This document shows, piece by piece, positions 6,846 through 50,995 of a stretch of 64,000 nt of DNA; position 1 is the first letter of the stretch, and each line of letters begins with the position of its first letter. The position numbers were made by a program, and so were the translations under genes. Under the pieces are notes generated by a model. The model did no database searches. It saw only the letters and a list, made by a program, of their open reading frames with translations, and was not told where the DNA came from. Source of the DNA: Agapetus fuscipes (lineage: Eukaryota; Arthropoda; Insecta; Trichoptera; Glossosomatidae); the NCBI GenBank assembly GCA_951799405.1, contig OX637362.1, positions 10,216,493 through 10,280,492 on the forward strand. The letters run 5' to 3'.

Positions 6846-6955
6846 AAACTCACTTCGATTGCGTAAATCGAAAATGTATGGAATATATGATAGCACTCTT
6901 AAAAAGTGACAAAGTTTTCATACATTTTTTCGATTTACACAATCAAAGGGAGTTT
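6846..6955. repeat. Inverted repeat, 110 bp
   Basis: AAACTCACTTCGATTGCGTA pairs imperfectly with the complement at 6918-6955. Confidence 0.6.
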
Positions 6956-9271: not shown

Positions 9272-9590
9272 TTTTTTTTTTTTTTAAGAAATCCTGTGCG
9301 GGAGACTCCCTAGGTTCTAGAGACTAGGGATGACACTTGTTGTAGTGCTGCAGAGGTGTACGAGCTTAGTCGTCGCTACAAAGCGCCAATACTCAAGCAA
9401 GACCCAGTTGCTGTAAGGCTGGATGGACCTTTGGTGACCGGTCATTGGTAAAGGTTTATGAATTGTTCAACCCAGCGAAGAGCAAATTTGAAAAAATAAA
9501 TGGTATATTTTTTGTGCTCCGCCGAGATTCGAACCCACAATCTTCCCATTCAGAGTCCGCAGTGTTACCACTGAGCTACCGACCAGTCAA
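9272..9590 (-). repeat. SINE1 copy with LINE-C tail, no 5S head
   Basis: Read on the minus strand: tRNA-like unit (GGTAGCTCAGTGG A box, GGTTCGAATCTC B box), SINE1 body, then the LINE-C-like tail ending in the A-run seen as T's at 9272-9285. It has the same body-tail junction as the 13 kb copy. No 5S head is visible beyond 9590. Confidence 0.8.
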
Positions 9591-10867
9591 ATTTTGGTTG
9601 TAATACGACTCAAATGAACATTTTTGATCGGAAACATGACAAAAACAGTGCATCAGTTTGTTTTATAATCCATTGACTTTGTTTCTACCGATAATTCAGT
9701 TTATCTCTACATCCCGTTTCGGTGCAGAATCAACTTGAGCGTAAAATTAATTTATGCTGAAATATAACAAACTGATTGAATCACGGCGCTTTGATGATCG
9801 TACGAGTGCACTCCGGTAATGCATAATAATAATATCATCATTATCATCATCATAATTATCTTTTTTAATATCATGTTTTCAGTACTTCTAGTTGCAGTAA
9901 AAAAAGTAGTAGGTGCGCTCACATGTCGTGGAGAGTAAAAATGTATGGCGGTTTGCGTCGCCATTTACGCTCACTGGAGGCGCTGTTTAAACTACCATAA
10001 GATTCAACAGCGCCTCAACAGCGAAGGATAGATGGTAACAAGGATGGATGGAAATTGATAGAATAAAGCAGGGCTGTCCAACATACGGCCCGCGGGCCAC
10101 AATGTGTCCCGCGTAAGCCTTGCATCCGGTCCGCGACGACATAAATAGTAATTGCGCAATAAGTTCAACCATCTATGCGCCGGCCGTCGAAAATTTTTTG
10201 TGGCATTTTTTGAAAATTGTGTGCCTTTTTTACAGTATGAGCTGTCAGTTGTAACCCAAACTTTTATTTAAGGAACAAAAATTACAATTTGTACAATAAT
10301 TATATAAAAAAACGATAATTTATGAAAAAGTTTCTGAAATACAAATGACAAAGAACATGTCTCCACAATGTCTACTATCATTTTATCAGAAGTGTCCGAA
10401 GTCAAAAAATTCATCGTACAATCTCTCCTTTTATTTTGACTCTGGATATCCTCATCGTTCACTATTTGAGTAACTTGATCCATGAAATCAACAAGACTTA
10501 AAAAAAATGCATTTATATTTTTTAGCGTTTAATAACAATAAAAAACAAATAAGTACCATCTGGTGTAGATATGCGAGTTTTTAATTATTAAATTTTAATA
10601 GCTCACTGCCATCTAGTAGACTTTTCCCAAACTACAAGCTTCTGAGGGCCGCAAGTAGATGTCTCTACACATCTACTTTGTACAATGTACAATGTCTTTT
10701 TAGTCGTAAAATATCATTCCTCAAAATTTGCTTTAAAGCTTATTAGTGGAAATTTTTAAAATGTTAGAAACATAGTTTGAATTTTAATCAATAATTATCG
10801 AAAAAAAACCTTATCAAGGTCAAAAAATATATATTTTTTTAAATTTATTATATATTTTATCTGTTCT
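9591..10867. other. No gene seen
   Basis: Contains an AT-rich (ATT)/(ATC) run at 9825-9860 and a small GC patch at 10080-10180 (CGGCCCGCGGGCC), possibly a repeat scrap. Confidence 0.3.
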
Positions 10868-12927: not shown

Positions 12928-13144
12928 ATCTATGATCTAAGTTGCAAAGATATATTAACATTCAAAACTGATATAAAATCCATGCCCACAAACAGACACG
13001 TGTAAGTTCGCGCTTACAAATGCTGAATGTGTACTTACAAATATAAATTCAAACCTCAAAGGAACATACACCCTGCATCTTTTGCCGACCTTCCCTGAAA
13101 CAGGGGTGACATTAGCTAAGTGAACCATTTTTACAGTATTGTGT
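12928..13144 (-). repeat. LINE-A 3' end abutting SINE1
   Basis: Minus-strand unit that ends directly at the 5S head of the SINE1 copy. Confidence 0.75.
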
Positions 13145-13259
13145 GTCAACAATACCATGTTGAAAGCACCGATTCTCATCAGATCACCGAAGGAAAGCAA
13201 CATTGAGCGCGGATGCTACTTGAATGGGCTACCGCTCAGGTACACCGCGTGTCGTTGGC
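13145..13259 (+). pseudogene. 5S rRNA-derived SINE head (copy 1)
   Basis: 115 bp that follows animal 5S rRNA from its GCCAAC-like start (here GTCAAC) through ATACCATGTTGAA, a CACCG block and an AAGCAACATTG box, to the C-box region (GAATGGGCTACCGCT) and the terminal GTTGGC. It differs from a functional 5S gene at many sites and runs straight into the tRNA-like unit rather than a T-run terminator, so it is a SINE promoter module and not an rRNA gene. Confidence 0.85.
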
Positions 13260-13599
13260 ATCTTGGACCGGTCCGTAGTCCAATGGCAACACTTCGGACT
13301 CGTAAATGGAAGGTTGTGGATTCGGATCCCGGCGGAGCACAAAAGTATATCTACATTTTATATTTCCAAATATGCTCTTCGCTGGTTTGAAAAAAAAATC
13401 AGAAAGCCTTTACCAAAGACCGGTCAGTACAGGTCCATCCAGCCTTACAGCAATTGGGTCTTGCTTGAGTATTGCCGCTTTGTAGCGACGACCAAGCTCG
13501 TACACTTCTGCGGCACTACAGCAAGTGTCATAGACCCCTAGAGTCTCTAGAATCTAAGGAGTCTCCCGCACAGGATTTCTTTAAAAAAAGTATGGGTGG
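13145..13599 (+). repeat. Full-length SINE1: 5S head + tRNA-like + body + LINE-C tail
   Basis: Modules in order: a 5S rRNA-derived head 13145-13259; a tRNA-like unit about 13267-13340 with A box TAGTCCAATGG (13276-13286) and B box GATTCGGATCC (13319-13329); a body to about 13498 (AAAGACCGGTC, CAGCCTTACAGCAA blocks); then a tail about 13500-13592 matching the 3' end of the LINE-C copy at 19750-20213 (TTCTGCGGCAC to GCACAGGAT) and an A-rich end. It is a non-autonomous retroposon, predicted to be Pol III transcribed. It abuts a minus-strand LINE-A 3' end. Confidence 0.85.
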
Positions 13600-17043: not shown

Positions 17044-17452
17044 TTTACAGGAAGAAGTGGCGGCTAATCTTCAATGTTGATTTCTAATGTTGGTGTATTC
17101 ATTTGCTACATTTTTTGCATAGGAAATTTTTGACCTTTTTTGTATAGATTTCTTTGTAAGGTTTTGTTCTTTTTTATATTTAAATGTAATTTATTATTCA
17201 TATTCCTTGACTTATAGGTTGGTATGAGGCTGACCACCCATACTGTAAAAAATGGTTCACTTTGCCAATGTCACCCCTGTTTCAGGGAAGGTCGGCAAAA
17301 GTTGTGGGGCTTATGTTCATTTGAGGTTTGGATTTTATTTGTAAGTACACATTCAGCATTTGTAAGCGCGAACTACCCTTGTTGGTTTGTGGGCATACAT
17401 CTGAGAGCTTTAAATGAATATATCCTTGCAACTTAGAATATGGATTATAGTG
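17044..17452 (+). mobile_element. LINE-A copy: last codons plus 3' end
   Basis: Starts GAAGAAGTGGCGGCTAATC (end of the coding tail), spacer, then the 3' end from 17208. It lies head-to-head with the minus-strand copy at 16829-17040. Confidence 0.75.
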
Positions 17453-17633: not shown

Positions 17634-17830
17634 CCCTGAGTACGAGTTTTTTCACTCTGCTCGAAGTATAGTGTATTCGAGAAAAATGCATGTGAACTTG
17701 TAAAGCACCCCTGGCAAAAAAGGTTTCGAAGCTTGTTTTGCCAGAGGTGCTTTACAAGTTCACATACATTTTTCTCGAATACACAATACTTCAAAGTTCA
17801 AGTAAAGTGAAAAAACTCGTACTCGGGGTA
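17634..17830. repeat. Long hairpin (arms about 85 bp)
   Basis: GAGTACGAGTTTTTTCACT and AGTGAAAAAACTCGTACTC at the ends, GTGAACTTGTAAAGCACC and GGTGCTTTACAAGTTCAC further in, loop near 17719-17738. Likely a MITE. Confidence 0.75.
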
Positions 17831-19280: not shown

Positions 19281-19746
19281 ATGCACAACAAATTACATTT
19301 TTGAAATCGAATACAAAATTGTTTTTACTTTATCCATCAAAAGATCATAGATCGATAAATTTCAATCTGGGAGAATAAGAAAGGAAAGAATATGCCAAAG
19401 CCATTCCTTCGGGAATAAGTTTAATTACTTCCTCTATCACAAAAATCGGTATTGAAGCTATACTTTCGAGGGATTATTTTAAAAAATTGAATGAATTTGC
19501 ATGCACTACAAAGTAAACTAAATGGAGTTCTGCTACAGTCCTTAGTCGTTAGAAAACAAAAAACAAAACACTTTATGTCAACTATATTAAAACACTTTTT
19601 AAAGCAAACTGACTTGTGGAACGATTTGTTTTCAGCTTTGTTTTCGGGTCTTGATTGAGAATTTGGAATGATATAACCACTCATCATTGCAACTTTTTTT
19701 TGCAGTTGATTTTTAAGTAATAATTCTTTACTTCCTTACAGTATCA

Positions 19747-20213
19747 TCAATGATCAATGATCCTTCTCTGACATCCGATCTGCAGCCGCTCCAGCACAGA
19801 AGAAAAGTTGGAATGCTCAGTCTTTTTTATCGATATTACCACGGAGCTTGTTCTAATGAGCTCCATTCATTAATCCCTCCCCCTCGCATTTCAGAAAGGG
19901 AAACTCGTAGTACGACTCTCATTCATCCCTTTGCAGTCGATTTCAAAACTATGAAAACTTGGCGTTTTCATGACTCATTCCTTTGCCAAACTGCCCGTTT
20001 ATGGAATGATCTACCAGTATCTGTGTTCCCTTCACAATTTAATCCGGTTTTATTCAAAACCAACATCAAACACCACTTCCTTGCAGCGCCTCACGACAGA
20101 ACCAAGAACTCAATCAACACCTCTGCGGCACCCTTCCAGGGTGACATAGACCCCCAAGACTCTCAAGAATTGGGGAGCCTCCCGCACAGGATTCCTTAAA
20201 AAAAAAAAAAAAA
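19747..20213 (+). mobile_element. LINE-C (Jockey/CR1-like) 3' insertion with poly-A
   Basis: The frame to 20199 reads LQPLQHRRKVGMLSLFYRYYHG...HPFAVDFKT...FLCQTARLWNDLPVSVF, the typical C-terminus of Jockey/CR1-type LINE reverse transcriptases. It ends in an A-run at about 20199-20213. An AGTATCA duplication near 19740 and 20212 marks the insertion. Its last 100 bp (CCTCTGCGGCACCC to CACAGGATTCC) also form the tail of some SINE1 copies. Confidence 0.85.
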
Positions 20214-24102: not shown

Positions 24103-24419
24103 ATACATATAATAATAATATAATATTAGGATGATTTATTTGGTGAGCGCTGTTTTTGTGTGTATCACACCTCAAGAGCCCTCTGCGAGCTTGGTCGTCG
24201 CTGTAGAAAGCGCCAATTCTCAAGCAAGACCCAGTTGTTGTAAGGTTGGATGGACCTTTCAGTGACCGGTCTTTGGTAAAGGTTTATGAATTTTTCAACT
24301 CAGCGAAGAGCGCATTCGAAATATAAATGGTATATTTTTGTGCTCCGCCGGGATCCGAATCCACAACCTTCCATTTACGAGTCCGAAGTGTTGCCACTAC
24401 GGACTACGGACCGGTCCAA
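24103..24419 (-). repeat. SINE1 copy (tRNA head, tail B)
   Basis: A nearly complete tRNA-headed copy with (ATT)n tail at 24103-24120 and head ending near 24418. It is inserted in the same LINE-A copy that resumes at 24430. It faces the + strand SINE1 at 24541, forming an inverted pair with about 120 bp between. Confidence 0.8.
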
Positions 24420-24540
24420 GAAAAAAACAGAAAAATAAATAAATCTTTAATATGCAAAATAAAAATAAACATCAAAATATAAAACCTTAACCGTCAACAT
24501 TGCAGATCAACGCCCTTTTTTCGGTCCTTGCATTCTTCTG

Positions 24541-24826
24541 AGCGGTCCGTTGTCTAGAAGTTAACAATTCTGACTAGTAAAATGGAAGGTTGTGGGTTCG
24601 AATCCCGGCGGAGCACAAAAAAATATATCATTTATATTTTCATATTTGCTCTTTGCTTGGTGAAAAAATTCATATACCTTTACCAAAGACCGGTCACTAA
24701 AAGTCCATCCAGCCTTACAGCAACAGGGAATTGCTTGAGAATTAGCGCTTTCTACAACGACAACCAAGCTCTTGAGGTGTGATACACACAAAAACAGTGC
24801 TCACCAAATAAATCAGTCTATTTTTT
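24541..24826 (+). repeat. SINE1 copy (tRNA head, tail B)
   Basis: Starts GCGGTCCGTTGTCTAG, keeps the B box GGTTCGAATCCC and the body, and ends in tail B AAATAAATCAGTC. The A-box region is degenerate. Confidence 0.8.
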
Positions 24827-24854: not shown

Positions 24855-25122
24855 GAGTAATAATCTAATCTAATCTAATCTAATCTAAGCTGCAAAGATA
24901 TATATCATTTAAGATTTATATTAAATGCATTCCCACAAGCAGACATGTATAATTTCGCGCTAATACATGCCGCATGTGGACCTACAATATAAAAACCCAA
25001 TCTCAAATGAACATAAGCCCTGCAACTCTTGCCGTCCTTCCCTGAAACAGGGGTGACATTGGCAAAGTGAACCATTTTTTACAGTATGGGTGGTCAGCCG
25101 CATACCAACCTATAAGTCAAGG
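24855..25122 (-). repeat. LINE-A 3' end with long (TCTAA) tract
   Basis: A full minus-strand unit. The terminal pentamer tract is at least four units (24861-24886). Confidence 0.85.
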
Positions 25123-29544: not shown

Positions 29545-32500
29545 ATGCTTCGTCAAGTTGTGGTGGTCGCCTTCTTGATGCTCGGAGGCGCTCTTGGAGG
29601 GCCAGCCACATACCCACCTTCTCCAAATCCATCATATGCTCCCCAGGAACAGGCCGATCAACCTATCTACACCCCGGTGAGTCCCAATCCAGACCTCAAA
29701 GGTCTTACTTTTTAATAATTTGCAGTGACAGTAGTCACGAAACGGCGCTATAAAAATCATCATCATCAAGAGGAATGCGATTCACCAACCTATTTTGCAT
29801 GTTCAGAAACATGACAATTAATATTTCATTATTTCTTACATCATAACTCTGCCAAAGTCACCCCTGTTTCAGGGAAGGTCGGCAAAAGTTGTGGGGCTTA
29901 TGTTCATTTGAGGTTTGGATTATATTTGTAAGTACGCATTCAGCATTTGTAAGCGCGAACTACACGTGTTGGTTTGTGGGCATACATCTGAGAGCTTTAA
30001 ATGAATATATCCTTGCAAGTTAGAGTATAGATTGTTAAAGATACATATTTATTATATTTTCAAATAATATGCTCTTTGCTGCGTTAAAAAATCATAAAAC
30101 CTTTACCAAAGACCGGTCACTAAAGGTCCATCCAGCCTTACAGCAACTGGGTCTTGCTTGAGTATCGGCGCTTTATACAGCGACGATCAAGCTCGAAGAT
30201 GGCTCTTCAGGTGTCTTGTCTTGTATCCTGCCGCCATTCCTCTAGGGGTGCCCGGTATCTTCACACAATTGCCTCCACTTGACTCTATCCTTGCATACTT
30301 TTTTCATTTCATCTAATTTCATCACTTTTTTCATGCACGCTCTTCTCTTGTTTCCAGTCTGTAAATTCCATTCATTCGCAATCTCACTTATCTGATCCAT
30401 CCATTCTTTCCTAGGTCTTCCCCTTCCACGCTTACCTATTACATTCTGCAACAAACAAAAATAGCGTTCACTAAATAAATCATTCTAATATTATGCAATG
30501 CAAGGTGATATGACAGACCATTTTCTTCCAGGACGGTGGACCCTCAGCATCCGGCTTCCTCCAGGTATCTCCAGTCGCTGCAGGAGGCCCGTCTCCCTCC
30601 CCACCAGCTCCCCACGACATGCAGCCATATGCTCACGAGGGGTTCGCTGACAGCTATGGCGCTTACTCCGGATACGAACCCGGATATGGAGTGCAGACTG
30701 GGTAAGGAATATTACTCCAATGAAAATTTTAAATATTCGAACTTACATTATTCCCGACGTTTCGTTTTGCCGAAACCAACACCGTTACTGTTAAATAAAA
30801 ATCAATGTTGACCTGATGTCACACATTCTTATTTTATTTTGTAATGTATCATTGACTTATAGGTTGGTATGCGGCTGATCACCCATTCTGTAAAAATGGT
30901 TCACTTTGCCAATGTCACCCCTGTTTCAGGGAAGGACGGCAAGAGTTGCAGGGTGTATGTCCATTTGAGATTTGGTTTTTATGTTGCAGGTTCACATGAG
31001 GCATGTGCAAGTGCGAACTTGTACGTGTCTTGTTGTAAAATTGCATGTAATGTGAGTCTCCAGTGTAACATATCTTTGCAACTAAGATTAGATTAGATAA
31101 GATATGACTCTAAACAAACATACTGTAAAAAAATGATTCACTTTGCCAATGTCACCCCTGTTTAAATAAATAAAAATCGGCAAGGTTTACTCAGCCTTCA
31201 CAAGAAATGAGTACCTACCAGTCCCCTCCCACTTCACTGAAGTGGTTGGCATAAGGCCGGCCCCCTTACCTGTAAAAATAAATAGGTTCACTCGCCATAT
31301 GCGACCTCTTCAGGGATAAGGCGGAAATAAGTTACACTATATGTGTGGTTTAGTTGCGTTGCGTTACTTGATTTAATATATCTATATTTTTATGATATTT
31401 CCTTAATTGTTATTTGTTTTTTTAGCTACGAGGGCTACCTCCTACCATCAGCCCCAGGAAACGCCTACAACTCCTTGTCAGTGCCATCAGAAGAAGGACC
31501 CATCAGCTACCTGTGGAGTCTGCTTCCATACACCGCAGTGAGTATTGCTTAAGACTGCCATTCGAAAATGCACAATATATATTTTTTTGCTTTAGCCGTC
31601 AGGAACATACAACTTGTAGCTCTCCAATAGGGTGGAAGTATCTGTTAAGACGTTGATGAGTTGATGATAAAACACCATAAGGGATATATTGCGTCCGGTT
31701 TTTGAAGCCAGTCTCCTGAAGTAGCTTTTCATGGTCCCATTCTTTCACAATCTCCTCAATCTGATCACTCCATACTTTTCTCGGTCGTCCCTTGCCTCTT
31801 TTACCTTTCACACTTCCTGTCTTCCTCTGTATATAATATACTTTGTCAGTATATATACCATCTCATCACATTCTTTTGTACCTTAACTTTCACATCCTCT
31901 TTCAACTTACATTCTTTTTTTACCGATTCATTATATTCTTCAGGGTTTTCCTCATATGCTTCTCAAATGCTTCATTTCCAACGAACATACTTTACTTATT
32001 TTACCATCATTCACTGTTCATGCTTCACTTCCATACATCAAAGTCGGTAACAATATGCCATTGTCTACCGCCATTCACAGATCCATCGTCAATTGCTTGT
32101 TATTTGCTATTCTTCCTATTGCACCGACCACTTGCTTTCCTTATTCTCAAGGAGATTTGGATGATGAGAATGTTAGGAATGATTTCGAAGCTGAAGAAGC
32201 CCAGCTTTATACTTATACCTATGTCGTAAGTAAATATTATGCCTTTATGGGATGTACGCCACTATTTCCATCCAATTCTGAATTGTATTTGTTTTCTTCT
32301 TCAACAGACCGTTGTATCCGTTGTAGTCCACGTTGCCAAGTTCGTCCTCGGAGCTTCCGTGGTCCTCTTGGCTGGAGCAGCCATCGTCCTCGGGATCTGC
32401 ACCTTCACACCCCTCTGCAGCGTCCAGTTCCCAGGGTTCGATGGTTTGCACCTGAAGGAAGAAGTCAGGTCTCTCGTCACCCCCGACAACCTCTCCGCAG

Positions 32501-35279: not shown

Positions 35280-35940
35280 GAAGAATGACAGGAGAAAAAT
35301 TAAAAGATGAAGTATGAAATGAATGGGTTAAAAAAGACTTCAAACTTGAAAGGGATGTAAGAGCAAAGATATGAAATAATTTAATAAGATGGTTTGGGCC
35401 TTTGAAAAGAATGAATAATGAACGCTTGAACAGTACAATTATAGTGATTAAATGTAAGAAACAAGAGACGTAGGAGAAGACCGAGAAAGGAATGACTTTT
35501 GTTACAATGTGAATGTTTGGGAAAAAACAGAAAGGAAAGTAATAAAAAAGTAGTTTTTTTGTGTAGAACTGGTTCCTCGAATTACGATAGTGCACCCTCA
35601 CAGCCATCAACACAATGGGAGGAAACTTCTACCTAAAGATCTACATGTATCACTTATTTAAGGGTGATGTAAATGTACGAAAAAACTGAGAGAAGTATGC
35701 CAGGACTGGAAGTATCATAACCACCTTAATTCTTACCTACCGAATATCGGTAATGTTTGTATGAAGACCTGTCAATCCAAGATGGCTGCAAATGAACAGC
35801 TGATTAGTTTTCAAACAAATATTACCGATATTCGGTAGATAAGAATTACCGTGGGGATGAGACATCCAGCCCAGGATAGAAATAAATGGAGAAGACTCTG
35901 ACCACCCCTAGTGGAAAAGAGACAGCGTTATCGGGTTTGT
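35280..35940 (+). mobile_element. LINE-A coding fragment split by a palindromic MITE
   Basis: Degenerate RT tail (AAGATGGTTTGGGCCTTTGAA, GGAGAAGACCGAGAAAGG) up to about 35705. It resumes after the MITE at about 35869 with the GGAGAAGACTCTGACCACCC ending. Confidence 0.65.
35706..35868. repeat. Palindromic MITE copy inside LINE-A
   Basis: About 163 bp with arms of about 70 bp (ACCGAATATCGG core). Same orientation as the 12.6 kb copy. Confidence 0.8.
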
Positions 35941-37892: not shown

Positions 37893-37919
37893 TAAATTTA
37901 TGTATTTGTAAACATTATC

Positions 37920-38155
37920 TTCCTTGACTTATAGGTTGGTATGATGCTGACCACCCATACTGTAAAAAATGGTTCACTTTGCCAATGTCACCCCTGTTTC
38001 AGGGAAGATCAGCAAAAGTTGCAAGGCTTCTGTTCATTTGAGATTGGGTTTTTATATATTGTAGGTCCAGCGCGAAATTATGCGTGTCCGCTTGTGGGAA
38101 TGCATTTAATATGAATCTAAAATGATATATATCTTTGCAACTTAAATTTAGATTT
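37920..38155 (+). repeat. LINE-A 3' end
   Basis: Third unit of the local series. It lacks the CACATGCGGCATGTG block. Confidence 0.8.
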
Positions 38156-38790: not shown

Positions 38791-39242
38791 CGTTTACGTT
38801 TGTGATATCTGAAACAAAATAATTTTAAAATGGGTTATTAATTAGGCTTCTTTTATGAACCCCCATTTTTCGTTTTATTTTAATTCAGGAAAATAAATAA
38901 AACCGGTCGCAGCCTAGTATCTTACTCTACAAATTTAGTATCGAAAGGTATCTGATTCAATGCCCAGATGAGGAAAAAAATGTACAATGGTTTTCGAAAA
39001 TGCACAATTCCAAAAATGATGTTTGTGCTCCACCATGAATCGAACCCAAACCTTCCTATTACGAGCCCCAAGCGTTAGCCTCTACAATAAATACCAGTGA
39101 GCTAGGGTGTGTATATGTTATTATATTTTTTAGAAATTAAAATAAGAAAAAATAATTTGATTTGTTACCACAAAACATATTCGAGTATTGAGGGTTGAAA
39201 AAGTGTATTAAAAAAAGGAAAAAAAAAGGAAAAAGTGTAAAA

Positions 39243-40206
39243 TGTGTATTTGAAAAAGATGGAAGAATGACCGGTGAATTTGAAAGAAGAGTAATGAAGG
39301 GCAGGTGTGTACTGGGTGCCACAGCTTGTATCGCCAAAAATCAAAACATATCTAAAAATGCTCGATTGGCGGTACGCAGTGGCATACTTTTACCCACCTT
39401 GATGTATGGAAGCGAGGCCTGGACGGTGAATGAAAGTGAAATTAGTAAAGTCCATACTGTTGAAATGGACTTTCTAAGAAGTATGATTGGGAAAAAACGG
39501 AGTGACAGGGTGAGGAATGATTTTGTAAGAGAAGAATGTGGTGCAAGAGAAAGTGTGAAAGTGAAGATTAAAAGAAGTTTGTTAAGATGGTTTGGGCATA
39601 TGGAGAGAATGAATGAGGAAAGACTGACGAAGAAAGTATATGTTGGTAGAATAGATGGATGTCGTGGTAGAGGAAGACCGAGAAAGGTATGGATGGACCA
39701 AATATCCGAAATTGCGAATGAATGGAATATCCAGAGTCATAATAAAAGAAGAGCCTGTATGAAGAAAATTATGACTCTGGAGGAAATGAAAGAAGTATGT
39801 AAGGACAGAAAGAAATGGCGGTTGATCTGTAATGTTGGCGGCTAGGGTTTATTAAATTGGAATTTGTTTTTATTTGTAAATGGATATTTTGTATTTGGAT
39901 ATTATTATTTAGTGATGTATAAAATGTAATTTGTCGTGTGTGTGTGTTCCTTGACTTATAGGTTGGTATGCGGCTGACCACCCATGCTGTAAAAATGGTT
40001 CACTTTGCCAATGTCACCCCTGTCTCAGGGAAGGACGGCAAGAGTTGCAGGGTGTATGTCCATTTGAGATTTGGTTTTTATGTTGTAGGTTCACATGAGG
40101 CATGTGCAAGCGCGAACTTGTACGTGTCTGGTTGTGAGAATGCATGTAATGTGAATCTCCAATGTAACATATCTTTGCAACTTAGATTAGATTAGATTAG
40201 ATTAGG
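39243..40206 (+). mobile_element. LINE-A: best copy, RT C-terminus plus 3' end
   Basis: A 5'-truncated non-LTR retrotransposon. The frame reads VFEKDGRMTGEF...LLPTLMYGSEAWTVNE...LLRWFGHMERMNEERL...GRGRPRKVWMDQI, the typical C-terminal end of insect LINE reverse transcriptases (after the catalytic domain, which is absent), stopping at 39843-39845. After about 105 bp of AT-rich sequence, the family's 3' end follows (39951-40185), finishing in (TTAGA)n at about 40183-40206. This copy ties the abundant 250 bp repeat to its coding part. Confidence 0.85.
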
Positions 40207-41153: not shown

Positions 41154-42080
41154 ATGGGAAACAGCTCCAAAAAAATGGACATGTCCAACACACCACCGGA
41201 CGGTAGATCCAGAAAGAAAATTGACAGGACCAAAAACATGCCACCGCTGAAGACATCGTTCACTCCGGTGGATAAAAACGGAACTTCAGCAAGTAAAAGT
41301 GATCCAAATACCATTATGATACCTTTAAAAGATGATAGTAAAGATTCTGAAGACAAAAATAAAGCTGATGATGAAACGAAACCTTCAGAAGCATCCAAAG
41401 AAGCAACAAAAGTTGTAGAGACTAAAGAAGATGCTCTTGCACCTATTGTTGACGCCAAAGCATCAAATGGTGAATCTAAAACGTCCACAGAAGAACATCA
41501 AGTTTTAAAGAGTGAATCAACTTCAGAATCCAAAATTGAAAGTCATAAGAATGCCACTGTCGTTGAAAGTAAAAACAATGCGGAGGAAAGTAAACATGCT
41601 GCGGCTGATATGAAATTGGATGTTGTGGAAAGCAAGGCTGTTGTGCAAGATGAAAAATCTGTTGTAAAAGAAACAAATGCTGTTTCTGAAGAGAGTAAGC
41701 CTATGGTTGAAGAAAGCAAAGCAGTCACCGAAGACATCAAAATGATTGCCGAAGAAAACAAGTCAGCTGTTGAAGGCACCAAAACTGTTGTTGAAGACAA
41801 CAAAACTGTCGTTGAACACACCAAAATTGTTGAGGACAACAAAACCGTTGATGAAGAAAACAAAATGGTTGTTGAAGAAAGCAAAACGGTTGTCAAAGAG
41901 AGCAAAAAAATTGTCGAAGAAACCAAATCTGATGCAGTCATTTCTTCAAGTGTAACCAAGGAAGTGGTCATAACAGAGGAAGTGATAAAGATGAATGAAG
42001 GTTTAAGTGAAGTTGTTTTTGAAAAAATGCATGTCACCAGTTCATCAGCAGCTGTCCACGAAGAAAGGTATCACATCTGA
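41154..42080 (+). CDS. 308 aa acidic repeat protein with N-myristoylation motif
   Basis: An uninterrupted ORF with the context AAAAATGGGA. It begins MGNSSKK, fitting the N-myristoylation consensus (Gly2, small residue at 5/6, basic residues after), so membrane anchoring is predicted. Residues 1-50 are basic and Pro-containing. From about 60 the protein is Lys/Glu/Asp/Ser/Thr-rich with no hydrophobic core. Residues about 180-270 are a degenerate repeat of 7-8 residues of the form VVEE-S/N/T-K-T/A, probably disordered or helical. The tail is more hydrophobic (VVITEEVIKM...). No Cys or Trp is seen. I recognise no family. A GAAAG|GTATCA site just before the stop could be a splice donor, so the C-terminus may differ. 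An initiator-like ATCAGTC lies near 41054. The long antisense ORFs here are shadows of this low-complexity frame. Confidence 0.7.
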   Translation: MGNSSKKMDMSNTPPDGRSRKKIDRTKNMPPLKTSFTPVDKNGTSASKSDPNTIMIPLKDDSKDSEDKNKADDETKPSEASKEATKVVETKEDALAPIVDAKASNGESKTSTEEHQVLKSESTSESKIESHKNATVVESKNNAEESKHAAADMKLDVVESKAVVQDEKSVVKETNAVSEESKPMVEESKAVTEDIKMIAEENKSAVEGTKTVVEDNKTVVEHTKIVEDNKTVDEENKMVVEESKTVVKESKKIVEETKSDAVISSSVTKEVVITEEVIKMNEGLSEVVFEKMHVTSSSAAVHEERYHI

Positions 42081-42189: not shown

Positions 42190-42490
42190 CTTTAAAATAA
42201 TAAATAATATTAGGATGATTTATTTGGTGAGCGCTGTTTTTGTGTGTATCACACCTCAAGAGCCCTCTGCGAGCTTGGTCGTCGCTGTAAAAAGCGCCAA
42301 TTCTCAAGCAAGACCCAGTTGTGGTAAGGTTGGATGGACCTTTCAGTGACCGGTCTTTGGTAAAGGTTTATGAATTTTTTAACTCAGCGAAGAGCACATT
42401 CGAAATATAAATGGTATATTTTTGCGCTCCGCCGGGATCCGAATCCACAACCTTCCATTTACGAGTCCGAAGTGTTGCCACTACGGACTA
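42190..42490 (-). repeat. SINE1 copy (tRNA head, tail B)
   Basis: A minus-strand copy very similar to 24103-24419, with the same GTGAGCGCTGTTTTTGTGTG tail. It lies 110 bp after the 308 aa ORF and abuts a LINE-A 3' end. Confidence 0.8.
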
Positions 42491-42504
42491 CTTTGTACTT
42501 GTTT

Positions 42505-46833: not shown

Positions 46834-47125
46834 TTGGTCCGTAGTCCAGTGATAACACTTCGGACTCTTAAATGGAAGGTTGTGGGTTCGAATCCCAGCG
46901 GAGAACAAAAAATACACCATTTATATTTTCAAATTTGCTCTTCGCTGGGTTGAAAAATTCATAAACCTTCACCAAAGACCGGTCATCAAAAGGTCCATCC
47001 AGCCTTACAGCAGCTGGGTCTTGTTTGAGAATTGGCGCTTTCTACAGCGACGACCAATCTCACGAAAGGCTTTTGAGGTGTGATACATACAAAAACAGCG
47101 CTCACCAAATAAATCAGCCTAATTT
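46834..47125 (+). repeat. SINE1 copy (tRNA head, tail B)
   Basis: Begins TTGGTCCGTAGTCCAGTG (A box) with B box GGTTCGAATCCC, SINE1 body and tail B. No 5S head precedes it. Confidence 0.8.
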
Positions 47126-47164
47126 AATTTTTAATTTTTAAGTAGTAGATAATTATAAACGAAA

Positions 47165-48955: not shown

Positions 48956-49070
48956 GCCAACGACGATACCATGTTGAAAGCACCGGTTCATCAGATCAAC
49001 GAAGTTAAGCAACATTGGGTACGGATGCTACTTGGATGGGTGACCGCTAAGTACACCGCATGTTGTTGGC
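48956..49070 (+). pseudogene. 5S rRNA-derived SINE head (copy 2)
   Basis: 115 bp, better preserved than the 13 kb copy. It starts GCCAACGACGATACCATG; the 5S A-box region (GAAGTTAAGCAAC) and C-box region (GGATGGGTGACCGCTAAG) are easily recognised, and it ends GTTGTTGGC. These are the internal promoter elements bound by TFIIIA in true 5S genes. Confidence 0.9.
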
Positions 49071-49379
49071 ATTTCTTGGACCGGTCCGTAGTCCAGTGGC
49101 AACACTTCGGACTCGTAAATGGAAGGTTGCGGATTCGAATCCCGGCGGAGCACAAAAATATACCAGTTATATTTCCAAATGTGCTCTTCGCTGGATTGGA
49201 AAATTCATAAACCTTTACCAAAGATCGGTCACTGAAAAGTCCATCCAAGCTTATAACAACTGGGTCTTGCTTGAGAATTGGCGCTTTCTACAGCGACGAC
49301 CAAGCTTGCAGAGGGCTCTTGAGGTGTGATACACACAAAAACAGCGTTCACCAAATAAATCATCCTAATATTATTATTG
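48956..49379 (+). repeat. Full-length SINE1: 5S head + tRNA-like + body + tail B
   Basis: 5S-derived head 48956-49070, an 8 bp linker, a tRNA-like unit from about 49079 (A box TAGTCCAGTGG, B box GGATTCGAATCC), the SINE1 body, and then the alternative tail (GAGGGCTCTTGAGGTGTGAT to AAATCATCC) ending in (ATT)n near 49375. The 5S-tRNA junction GTTGGCATTTCTTGGACCGG matches that of the 13 kb copy apart from two inserted T's, so the composite is a propagated family and not a chance adjacency. Confidence 0.87.
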
Positions 49380-50685: not shown

Positions 50686-50995
50686 CAGACCGGTCCGTAG
50701 TTCAGTGGTAACACTTCGGACCCTGAATGGAAGGTTGTGGGTTCGAATCTCGGCAGAGCACAAAAAATATACAATTTATATTTTCAAATTTGCTCTTCGC
50801 TGGGTTAAAAAAATCATAAACCTCTGCGGCACTCTTCCAGGGTGACATAGACCCCCAAAACTTTCAAGAATTGGGGAGCCTTTCGCACAGGATTCCTTTA
50901 AAAAAATGACCGGTCACCAAAGGTCCATTCAGCCTTAGATACAGCAACTGTTGAAAATTGGCGCTTTGTAGCGACGACGACCAAGCTCGTAAAAA
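50686..50995 (+). repeat. SINE1 copy with an internal LINE-C tail
   Basis: tRNA head and early body run to about 50820. LINE-C 3'-end sequence then follows (50821-50907, CCTCTGCGGCACTC to CACAGGATTCC plus A-run), and the SINE1 body resumes (TGACCGGTCACCAAAGG). The LINE tail thus sits in the middle of a SINE. Confidence 0.75.

What the first reader, a model, noticed from the sequence alone, without database searches (positions are those of the whole stretch)
13145..13599. Composite insect SINE: 5S rRNA head fused to a tRNA-like unit, body and LINE tail
Two copies 36 kb apart (13145-13599 and 48956-49379) both start with a 115 bp 5S-derived module that runs, through the same short CTTGGACCGG junction, into a tRNA-like module with A and B boxes. 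A shared junction at two loci means the chimera itself retroposed. SINEs with both a 5S and a tRNA-type head are rare; the vertebrate AmnSINE1/DeuSINE group is the known parallel, and this one would be an independent insect version.
Basis: partly seen in the sequence, partly recalled or inferred. Interest (0 to 1): 0.9.

Follow-up and report, generated by a model that had tools for sequence, protein, structure and literature searches.

The report
SINE with stacked 5S-tRNA heads
This is a young, thousands-strong family of short jumping elements in a genome that is probably a moth's or butterfly's; its front end is a copy of the host's own 5S ribosomal RNA joined onto a complete tRNA-headed element, a layout known to me only from ancient vertebrate elements.

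Summary
Both window copies begin with a 5S module (Rfam 60.9 and 67.5 bits) that runs into a tRNA-like head, body and tail. Copy A is one insertion, 13140-13588, with a 5-bp duplicate, shown by an empty site. In the source genome (618 Mb, unnamed) the junction occurs 5,872 times (short form) and 2,593 times (long form), controls 0. Of 20 places chosen by a 5S core and not already held, 18 run into the tRNA head and 2 are genuine 5S genes. The least changed subfamily's head differs from those genes at 2 sites: the host's own 5S was captured. Four subfamilies exist; heads and tails were re-paired, and the two window copies carry different tails. Published moth 5S-SINEs (HaSE3, PxSE4/5) are described with 5S in place of the tRNA head; their sequences could not be compared. 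A new variant of the SINE3 kind, structurally parallel to AmnSINE1. Promoter use, partner LINE and host species are not shown.

The parts
13135..13139 (+). 5' target-site duplicate AGTAT of copy A
   Evidence: empty-site comparison
13140..13259 (+). Copy A: 5S rRNA-derived head (subfamily A)
   Evidence: Rfam RF00001 60.9 bits; whole element 94.8% to subfamily A consensus
13260..13261 (+). Copy A junction spacer AT (short form)
13262..13340 (+). Copy A: tRNA-like head; A box 13276-13286, B-box region 13319-13329 (GATTCGGATCC)
   Evidence: box consensus recalled
13341..13500 (+). Copy A: body shared by the subfamilies
13501..13588 (+). Copy A: tail type A, ending in an A-run
13589..13593 (+). 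3' target-site duplicate AGTAT of copy A
48956..49070 (+). Copy B: 5S rRNA-derived head (subfamily B)
   Evidence: Rfam RF00001 67.5 bits; whole element 96.2% to subfamily B consensus
49071..49074 (+). Copy B junction spacer ATTT (long form)
49075..49152 (+). Copy B: tRNA-like head (B-box region GATTCGAATCC)
49153..49308 (+). Copy B: body
49309..49378 (+). Copy B: tail type B, ending in (ATT)n
9278..9591 (-). tRNA-only relative without 5S, A-type tail, B box GGTTCGAATCT
24120..24423 (-). tRNA-only relative starting at the junction, B-type tail
24540..24815 (+). tRNA-only relative, B box GGTTCGAATCC
42203..42491 (-). 5'-cut tRNA-only relative, B-type tail
46836..47132 (+). tRNA-only relative, B box GGTTCGAATCC, B-type tail
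50688..50991 (+). tRNA-only relative with a rearranged tail A
20117..20205 (+). Stand-alone match to tail A (79.3% over 92 columns) overlapping the end of an open frame 19717-20199 of LINE-like look (no Pfam match)

Best explanation
It is a non-autonomous retroposon (SINE) with two stacked heads of RNA polymerase III type. Shown: a copy of the host's own 5S rRNA sits in front of a complete tRNA-headed SINE; in copy A the whole unit (5S, tRNA-like head, body, tail) went in as one piece; there are thousands of young copies, in at least four subfamilies that share one 5S capture but carry two different tails. Inferred: the capture happened when a reverse transcriptase copying a tRNA-SINE RNA ran off its 5' end and jumped to the 3' end of a 5S transcript. 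Inferred: the composite is transcribed from the 5S internal promoter straight through the tRNA part, and a LINE enzyme that recognises the tail inserts it. Inferred: the copies that begin at the junction come mostly from composite RNA, by a reverse-transcription stop or RNA cleavage at the base of the folded 5S.
For: Single insertion with empty site and 5-bp duplicate. Junction counts 5,872 and 2,593, reversed control 0. Of 41 rows in the search with copy A, one is itself, 39 cover query bases from 9 or lower to 433 or higher of 455 at 90-92%, one is a 53-bp piece (40 of 6,064 candidates scored). Of 20 5S-core places (of the first 28 listed; the other 8 were already held and all have the tRNA head), 18 continue into the tRNA head and 2 are 5S genes (17 by fuzzy match, L144 by eye). 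Subfamily O head (4 copies) vs two genuine 5S genes: 2 substitutions; A, B, T: 10, 12, 11 within the 5S (one search prints 11, 13, 12 with one flanking base). The base after CACCGCGTG is T, where the genes have C, in 50 of 52 junction copies that matched the exact pieces: one capture. Divergence within subfamilies A, T, B (30, 19, 11 copies) is 3.5, 2.5, 3.3% in the 5S part and 1.5-3.4% in the other parts. Heads of A and B differ at 2 aligned columns, their tRNA+body at 13; heads of B and T at 8, their tRNA+body at 4 (local alignments, ends may be trimmed). No TTTT run in any of the four consensuses. B-box position 2 keeps G in 1 of 83 5S-bearing copies, 6 of 33 junction-start copies and 21 of 28 other tRNA-only copies.
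Against: No transcript data: promoter use is not shown. Both genuine 5S genes share a TATA-like upstream stretch that the composites lack, and 5S promoters are said to depend on upstream signals (passage in PMC3272025), so the tRNA boxes may still matter. The terminator argument is weak: one gene has seven T right after GGC, the other only TTT before CATTTTTT, the long-junction composites ATTT. Box regions are not specially conserved among copies (5S box C region of subfamily A 5.3%). Target duplicates are short: 7 of 30 A-tail full copies have 5 bp or more (swapped control 5.2%), 6 of 26 B-tail full copies (control 8.9%); a looser test showed no excess, 2 of 38 at 8 bp or more against 3.9%. 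The junction-start peak rests on copies chosen by an intact CTTGGACC head. The B-box copies are related, and 28 of the loci were chosen for likeness to copy A. ARAGORN (bacterial code) finds no tRNA in the window.
Confidence: 0.68

Rival explanations
1. The tRNA boxes still drive the element and the 5S head is a passenger or helper; the copies that start at the junction are products of that promoter.
For: 21 of 66 non-duplicate tRNA-head copies start at the junction, 14 bases before the A box in the consensus, near where a tRNA-type start is expected (recalled). In subfamily T the short copies are as young as the composites (median 1.4%, n=8, vs 2.0%, n=18); in B and A they are older (3.5% vs 2.6%; 4.9% vs 3.2%). 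Older tRNA-only relatives also start within a few bases of that point.
Against: The B box is altered in 5S-bearing copies: position 2 keeps G in 1 of 83, position 7 keeps A in 23 of 83; T-type short copies such as L023, L025, L034 carry the altered box too. 36 of 66 copies carry the whole 5S, which the tRNA promoter alone cannot supply.
Confidence: 0.25
2. 5S was captured several times by different tRNA-SINE lineages; the junction is alike only because the tRNA-SINE has a fixed 5' end.
For: Two junction forms (AT and ATTT) and two different tails exist.
Against: The C-to-T change, absent from two genuine 5S genes, is in all four subfamily consensuses, and A, B and T share CTCAGGTACACC where the genes and O have CTTGGGAACACC.
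Confidence: 0.06
3. The two window copies are one segmental duplication, or a 5S pseudogene lying by chance next to a tRNA SINE.
For: Two similar copies 36 kb apart.
Against: Different tails and flanks; empty site for copy A; thousands of junction hits genome-wide.
Confidence: 0.01

Closest known systems
HaSE3 of Helicoverpa armigera (with HaSE1); PMC3272025
   Same: 5S-derived insect SINE that shares its 3' part with a tRNA-headed SINE of the same genome; the authors propose template switching.
   Different: HaSE3 is described as 5S joined to body and tail of HaSE1 (found with a 246-bp 3' region of the 386-bp HaSE1), that is, 5S in place of the tRNA head. Here the tRNA head is retained behind the 5S. 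HaSE3 was not found in BAC clones and called much less abundant than HaSE1.
PxSE4/PxSE5, LaSE2, CsSE2 (PMC8010984); SINE3-1_LyPhl, SINE3-1/2_ChrCul, SINE3-1_EnnFus (PMC10886601)
   Same: Lepidopteran 5S-headed SINEs; PxSE4 and PxSE5 share a 5' part and differ at the 3' end, as A and B do here; copy numbers 4,415 and 1,952.
   Different: Described as 5S-headed; ObSE2, which shares their central part, is described as tRNA-headed. No stacked 5S+tRNA head is described in the passages and sections read.
AmnSINE1 (DeuSINE group); PMC3234267 figure legend
   Same: Order: 5S-derived promoter, tRNA-derived region, central domain, 3' tail.
   Different: Vertebrate, with a Deu domain; its great age is recalled. 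Here the 5S is the host's own (2 substitutions) and the copies are young.

Membership tests
SINE (class) | Dispersed short copies inserted as a unit with target-site duplication | tested here: met
   Empty site and AGTAT duplicate for copy A; thousands of dispersed copies; duplicates of 5 bp or more in 7/30 A-tail full copies vs 5.2% control, 6/26 vs 8.9% in B-tail; no excess in the looser test
SINE (class) | Pol III-type internal promoter | tested here: inconclusive
   5S-derived head and tRNA A box present; no transcription data
SINE (class) | 3' tail shared with a partner LINE | tested here: inconclusive
   Tail A matches 20117-20205, overlapping the end of a LINE-like frame without Pfam match; for tail B only one stretch was looked at
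SINE3 (5S-derived) | 5' head derived from 5S rRNA | tested here: met
   Rfam 60.9-93.2 bits in six copies; 2-12 substitutions between subfamily consensus and host 5S
HaSE3 / PxSE4 type | 5S followed directly by body, no tRNA head | tested here: not met
   tRNA head behind the 5S in 18 of 20 5S-core places; the other 2 are 5S genes. The definition itself rests on text only
HaSE3 / PxSE4 type | Body and tail homologous to HaSE1/HaSE3 or PxSE4 | not testable with these tools
   Their sequences were not held
DeuSINE / AmnSINE1 | 5S region followed by tRNA region | tested here: met
   AmnSINE1 layout from a figure legend
DeuSINE / AmnSINE1 | Deu domain in the body | not testable with these tools
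   No Deu consensus was at hand; so not filed as a DeuSINE

The most novel reading that the evidence does not exclude
A young SINE with two stacked Pol III promoters caught during promoter replacement: the 5S head has taken over, the internal tRNA B box is decaying, the element leaves two classes of copies (full, and junction-started), and 5S heads are being re-paired with different bodies and tails within one genome.
Probability: 0.35. Interest if true: 0.65.

Novelty: new variant of a known kind. Interest (0 to 1): 0.52.

Why it matters
How 5S/tRNA composite SINEs such as AmnSINE1 arise can hardly be read from very old copies (their age is recalled). Here the donor 5S gene, a nearly unchanged first composite (O), tRNA-only relatives and young descendants coexist in one genome, so the capture, the fate of the second promoter and tail switching can be tested step by step. 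It also warns that 5S gene counts in such genomes can be inflated by thousands of SINE heads.

Tried and rejected
Segmental duplication and chance adjacency were rejected. Independent captures were disfavoured. Exact SINE patterns found nothing in viral contigs and genome contigs. An attempt to place the host with a window protein found no relatives, so 'probably a moth or butterfly' is inference only (many chromosome-sized contigs among the places listed, and likeness of layout to published moth SINEs). Three target-duplicate tests were made: a loose one without excess; a middle one (6 bp or more in 6 of 30 A-tail full copies against 1.45 expected, 3 of 27 B-tail full copies against 2.08); a strict one. 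Tail B was not tied to a LINE (one stretch looked at). The tail-A frame has no match in Pfam or in the PDB sequences. The Rfam microRNA matches in the window are below their cut-offs. The Rfam 5S family search of the genome did not complete. Literature: 8 full-text searches. PMC3272025: abstract, passages and sections 12, 16, 18. PMC8010984: abstract, passages and sections 7, 12. PMC10886601: passages and section 17. PMC3234267, PMC3747384, PMC5753468, PMC5063351: passages only. In these I saw no insect SINE described with 5S and tRNA heads in one element; Repbase, SINEBase, figures and supplements were not seen. Pol III box consensuses and the LINE C-terminal look are recalled.

Full report
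What is there. The window holds two SINE copies with a 5S rRNA head, at 13140-13588 and about 48956-49378, both on the + strand. Rfam scores the heads at 60.9 and 67.5 bits over the whole 5S model. Each head runs through GGC-AT-CTTGG (copy A) or GGC-ATTT-CTTGG (copy B) into a tRNA-like module with an A box, then a body, then a tail. The copies align at 84.8% over 355 columns and then part: copy A has a tail that ends in A, copy B an (ATT)n tail. The window also holds several relatives without any 5S.

One insertion. Copy A interrupts a repeat that is common in this window. Its joined flanks give 28 hits in the window, 22 of them across the joint, and AGTAT stands on both sides of the insert. 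So 5S, tRNA-like part, body and tail arrived together.

Genome-wide. The window lies in an assembly of 618 Mb and 148 contigs. Patterns with up to 3 mismatches give 9,343 hits for the tRNA head, 59,469 for the body, 7,016 for a 5S core, 5,872 for the short junction and 2,593 for the long junction; the reversed-pattern controls give 0 each. The two junction patterns should hardly overlap, but that was not tested. A DNA search with copy A scored 40 of 6,064 first-look candidates: of 41 rows, one is the query itself, 39 cover nearly its whole length at 90-92%, one is a 53-bp piece.

Do 5S and tRNA go together? From the 5S-core list (0 mismatches, contig 1) I took 20 of the first 28 places; the other 8 lay in loci already held, picked by tRNA head or body, and have the tRNA head. 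In 18 of 20 the 5S runs into the tRNA head (17 by fuzzy match, L144 by eye); 2 are genuine 5S genes. In 347,243 bases held earlier, 91 of 91 5S-like hits were followed by the tRNA head, though those loci had mostly been chosen for the SINE. The reverse does not hold: of the first 30 body hits (0 mismatches, contig 1), 8 have a full 5S head, 1 a cut one and 21 none. The composite is one branch of a larger tRNA-SINE family.

Where the 5S came from. The two genuine genes (L149, L150) score 113.3 bits each, have the same 5S sequence and share a TATA-like upstream stretch; after the 5S one has seven T, the other TTTCATTTTTT. Against them the consensus head of subfamily O (4 copies) differs by 2 substitutions, and A, B and T by 10, 12 and 11 within the 5S, T with one gap besides (one search prints 11, 13, 12, which include one flanking base). 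Of 52 junction-bearing copies that matched the exact pieces, 50 carry the same C-to-T change near the 3' end, and A, B and T share CTCAGGTACACC for CTTGGGAACACC. This is one capture of the host's own 5S followed by divergence, so any likeness to vertebrate 5S-tRNA SINEs is convergence.

Subfamilies and re-pairing. O and A carry tail A; B and T carry tail B. Heads A and B differ at 2 aligned columns and heads B and T at 8, whereas the tRNA-plus-body parts of A and B differ at 13 and those of B and T at 4 (local alignments, so ends may be trimmed). Heads and 3' parts therefore have different histories and were re-paired, by recombination or template switching. Window copy A fits subfamily A (94.8%) and copy B subfamily B (96.2%). 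Copies are young: the median distance of the tRNA-to-tail part from its consensus is 2.0% (T, 18 full copies), 2.6% (B, 13), 3.2% (A, 2) and 4.6% (O, 4) in the pattern-selected set. Divergence in the 5S part (2.5-3.5%) is near that of the other parts (1.5-3.4%), a little higher in A and T; the box C region of A stands at 5.3%.

5' ends. Of the first 70 tRNA-head hits (0 mismatches, contig 1), 4 were removed as duplicates of the same insertion; of the remaining 66, 36 have the full 5S, 9 are cut within it and 21 start at the junction (L067 and L069 look like one more shared site and were both kept). Uniform cutting along the 5S would put about 11% of the incomplete copies in the junction stretch; 21 of 30 are there (binomial p 4e-14). 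The test is conditional on an intact head. Two readings remain: a stop or cleavage at the base of the 5S fold (the predicted fold closes just before the junction), or a start from the tRNA promoter. The B box hints at the first: position 2 keeps G in 1 of 83 5S-bearing copies, 6 of 33 junction-start copies and 21 of 28 other tRNA-only copies; position 7 keeps A in 23 of 83, 18 of 33 and 25 of 28. These copies are related and 28 of the loci were picked for likeness to copy A, so this is no test of selection.

Insertion. Target duplicates are short. With strict placement, 7 of 30 A-tail full copies have 5 bp or more (control 5.2%) and 5 of 30 have 6 or more (1.0%); for B-tail full copies 6 of 26 (8.9%) and 2 of 26 (3.4%); for B-tail junction-start copies 4 of 14 (13.2%) and 3 of 14 (5.5%). 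A looser test showed no excess. Tail A has a stand-alone match at 20117-20205 that overlaps the end of an open frame of LINE-like look, but Pfam does not recognise the frame. Tail B was not traced to a LINE.

Comparison with what is known. HaSE3 of H. armigera is called the first insect chimera of 5S and a tRNA-derived SINE; the text describes 5S joined to body and tail of HaSE1. PxSE4, PxSE5, LaSE2 and CsSE2 are described as 5S-headed and ObSE2 as a tRNA-headed element that shares their central part. More lepidopteran SINE3 families are named in PMC10886601, and one in a beetle, SINE3-1_TC, in PMC3272025. In none of the passages read is a 5S head described in front of a retained tRNA head in an insect. 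AmnSINE1 has that order, followed by a Deu domain (figure legend). I could not fetch any of these sequences, so homology of the body to HaSE1 or PxSE4 is open, and the arrangement may sit unremarked in a published consensus.

Verdict. Real, well supported as a retroposing composite (I would put that part above 0.95), independent of vertebrates, and a new variant of the SINE3 kind. How it is transcribed is the open part, and the confidence given for the whole explanation reflects that.

Noticed in passing
window 24336-24620: Two tRNA-SINE copies in opposite orientation form a large inverted repeat that Rfam scores weakly as a microRNA precursor (54 bits, cut-off 230).
   Followed up: partly
window 17690-17765, 35732-35843, 6849-6952: Long palindromes (MITE-like) scored below cut-off as microRNA families MIR6024 and MIR1444.
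   Followed up: no
window, e.g. 17205-17304, 25019-25122, 37919-38023: A host repeat with 22 stretches that match the empty site of copy A across the joint; its nature was not studied.
   Followed up: partly
window 39195-39845: Open frame of 216 aa resembling the C-terminal end of a LINE protein (recalled look; no Pfam match).
   Followed up: partly
window 41154-42080: Open frame of 308 aa with repeated VEESK/VVED-like units; no relatives at E 0.001 in the protein search.
   Followed up: partly
window 30052-30520: A SINE copy whose body and tail seem split by an inserted segment.
   Followed up: no
L140 (beside the 5S gene of L150): A tRNA-like stretch on the opposite strand about 50 bases after a genuine 5S gene, seen by eye; ARAGORN reports no gene in the short piece held.
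   Followed up: partly
L018/L065/L079, L066/L073, L069/L071: SINE copies with identical 5' flanks at distant places, so some copies multiplied inside a larger repeat or duplication.
   Followed up: no
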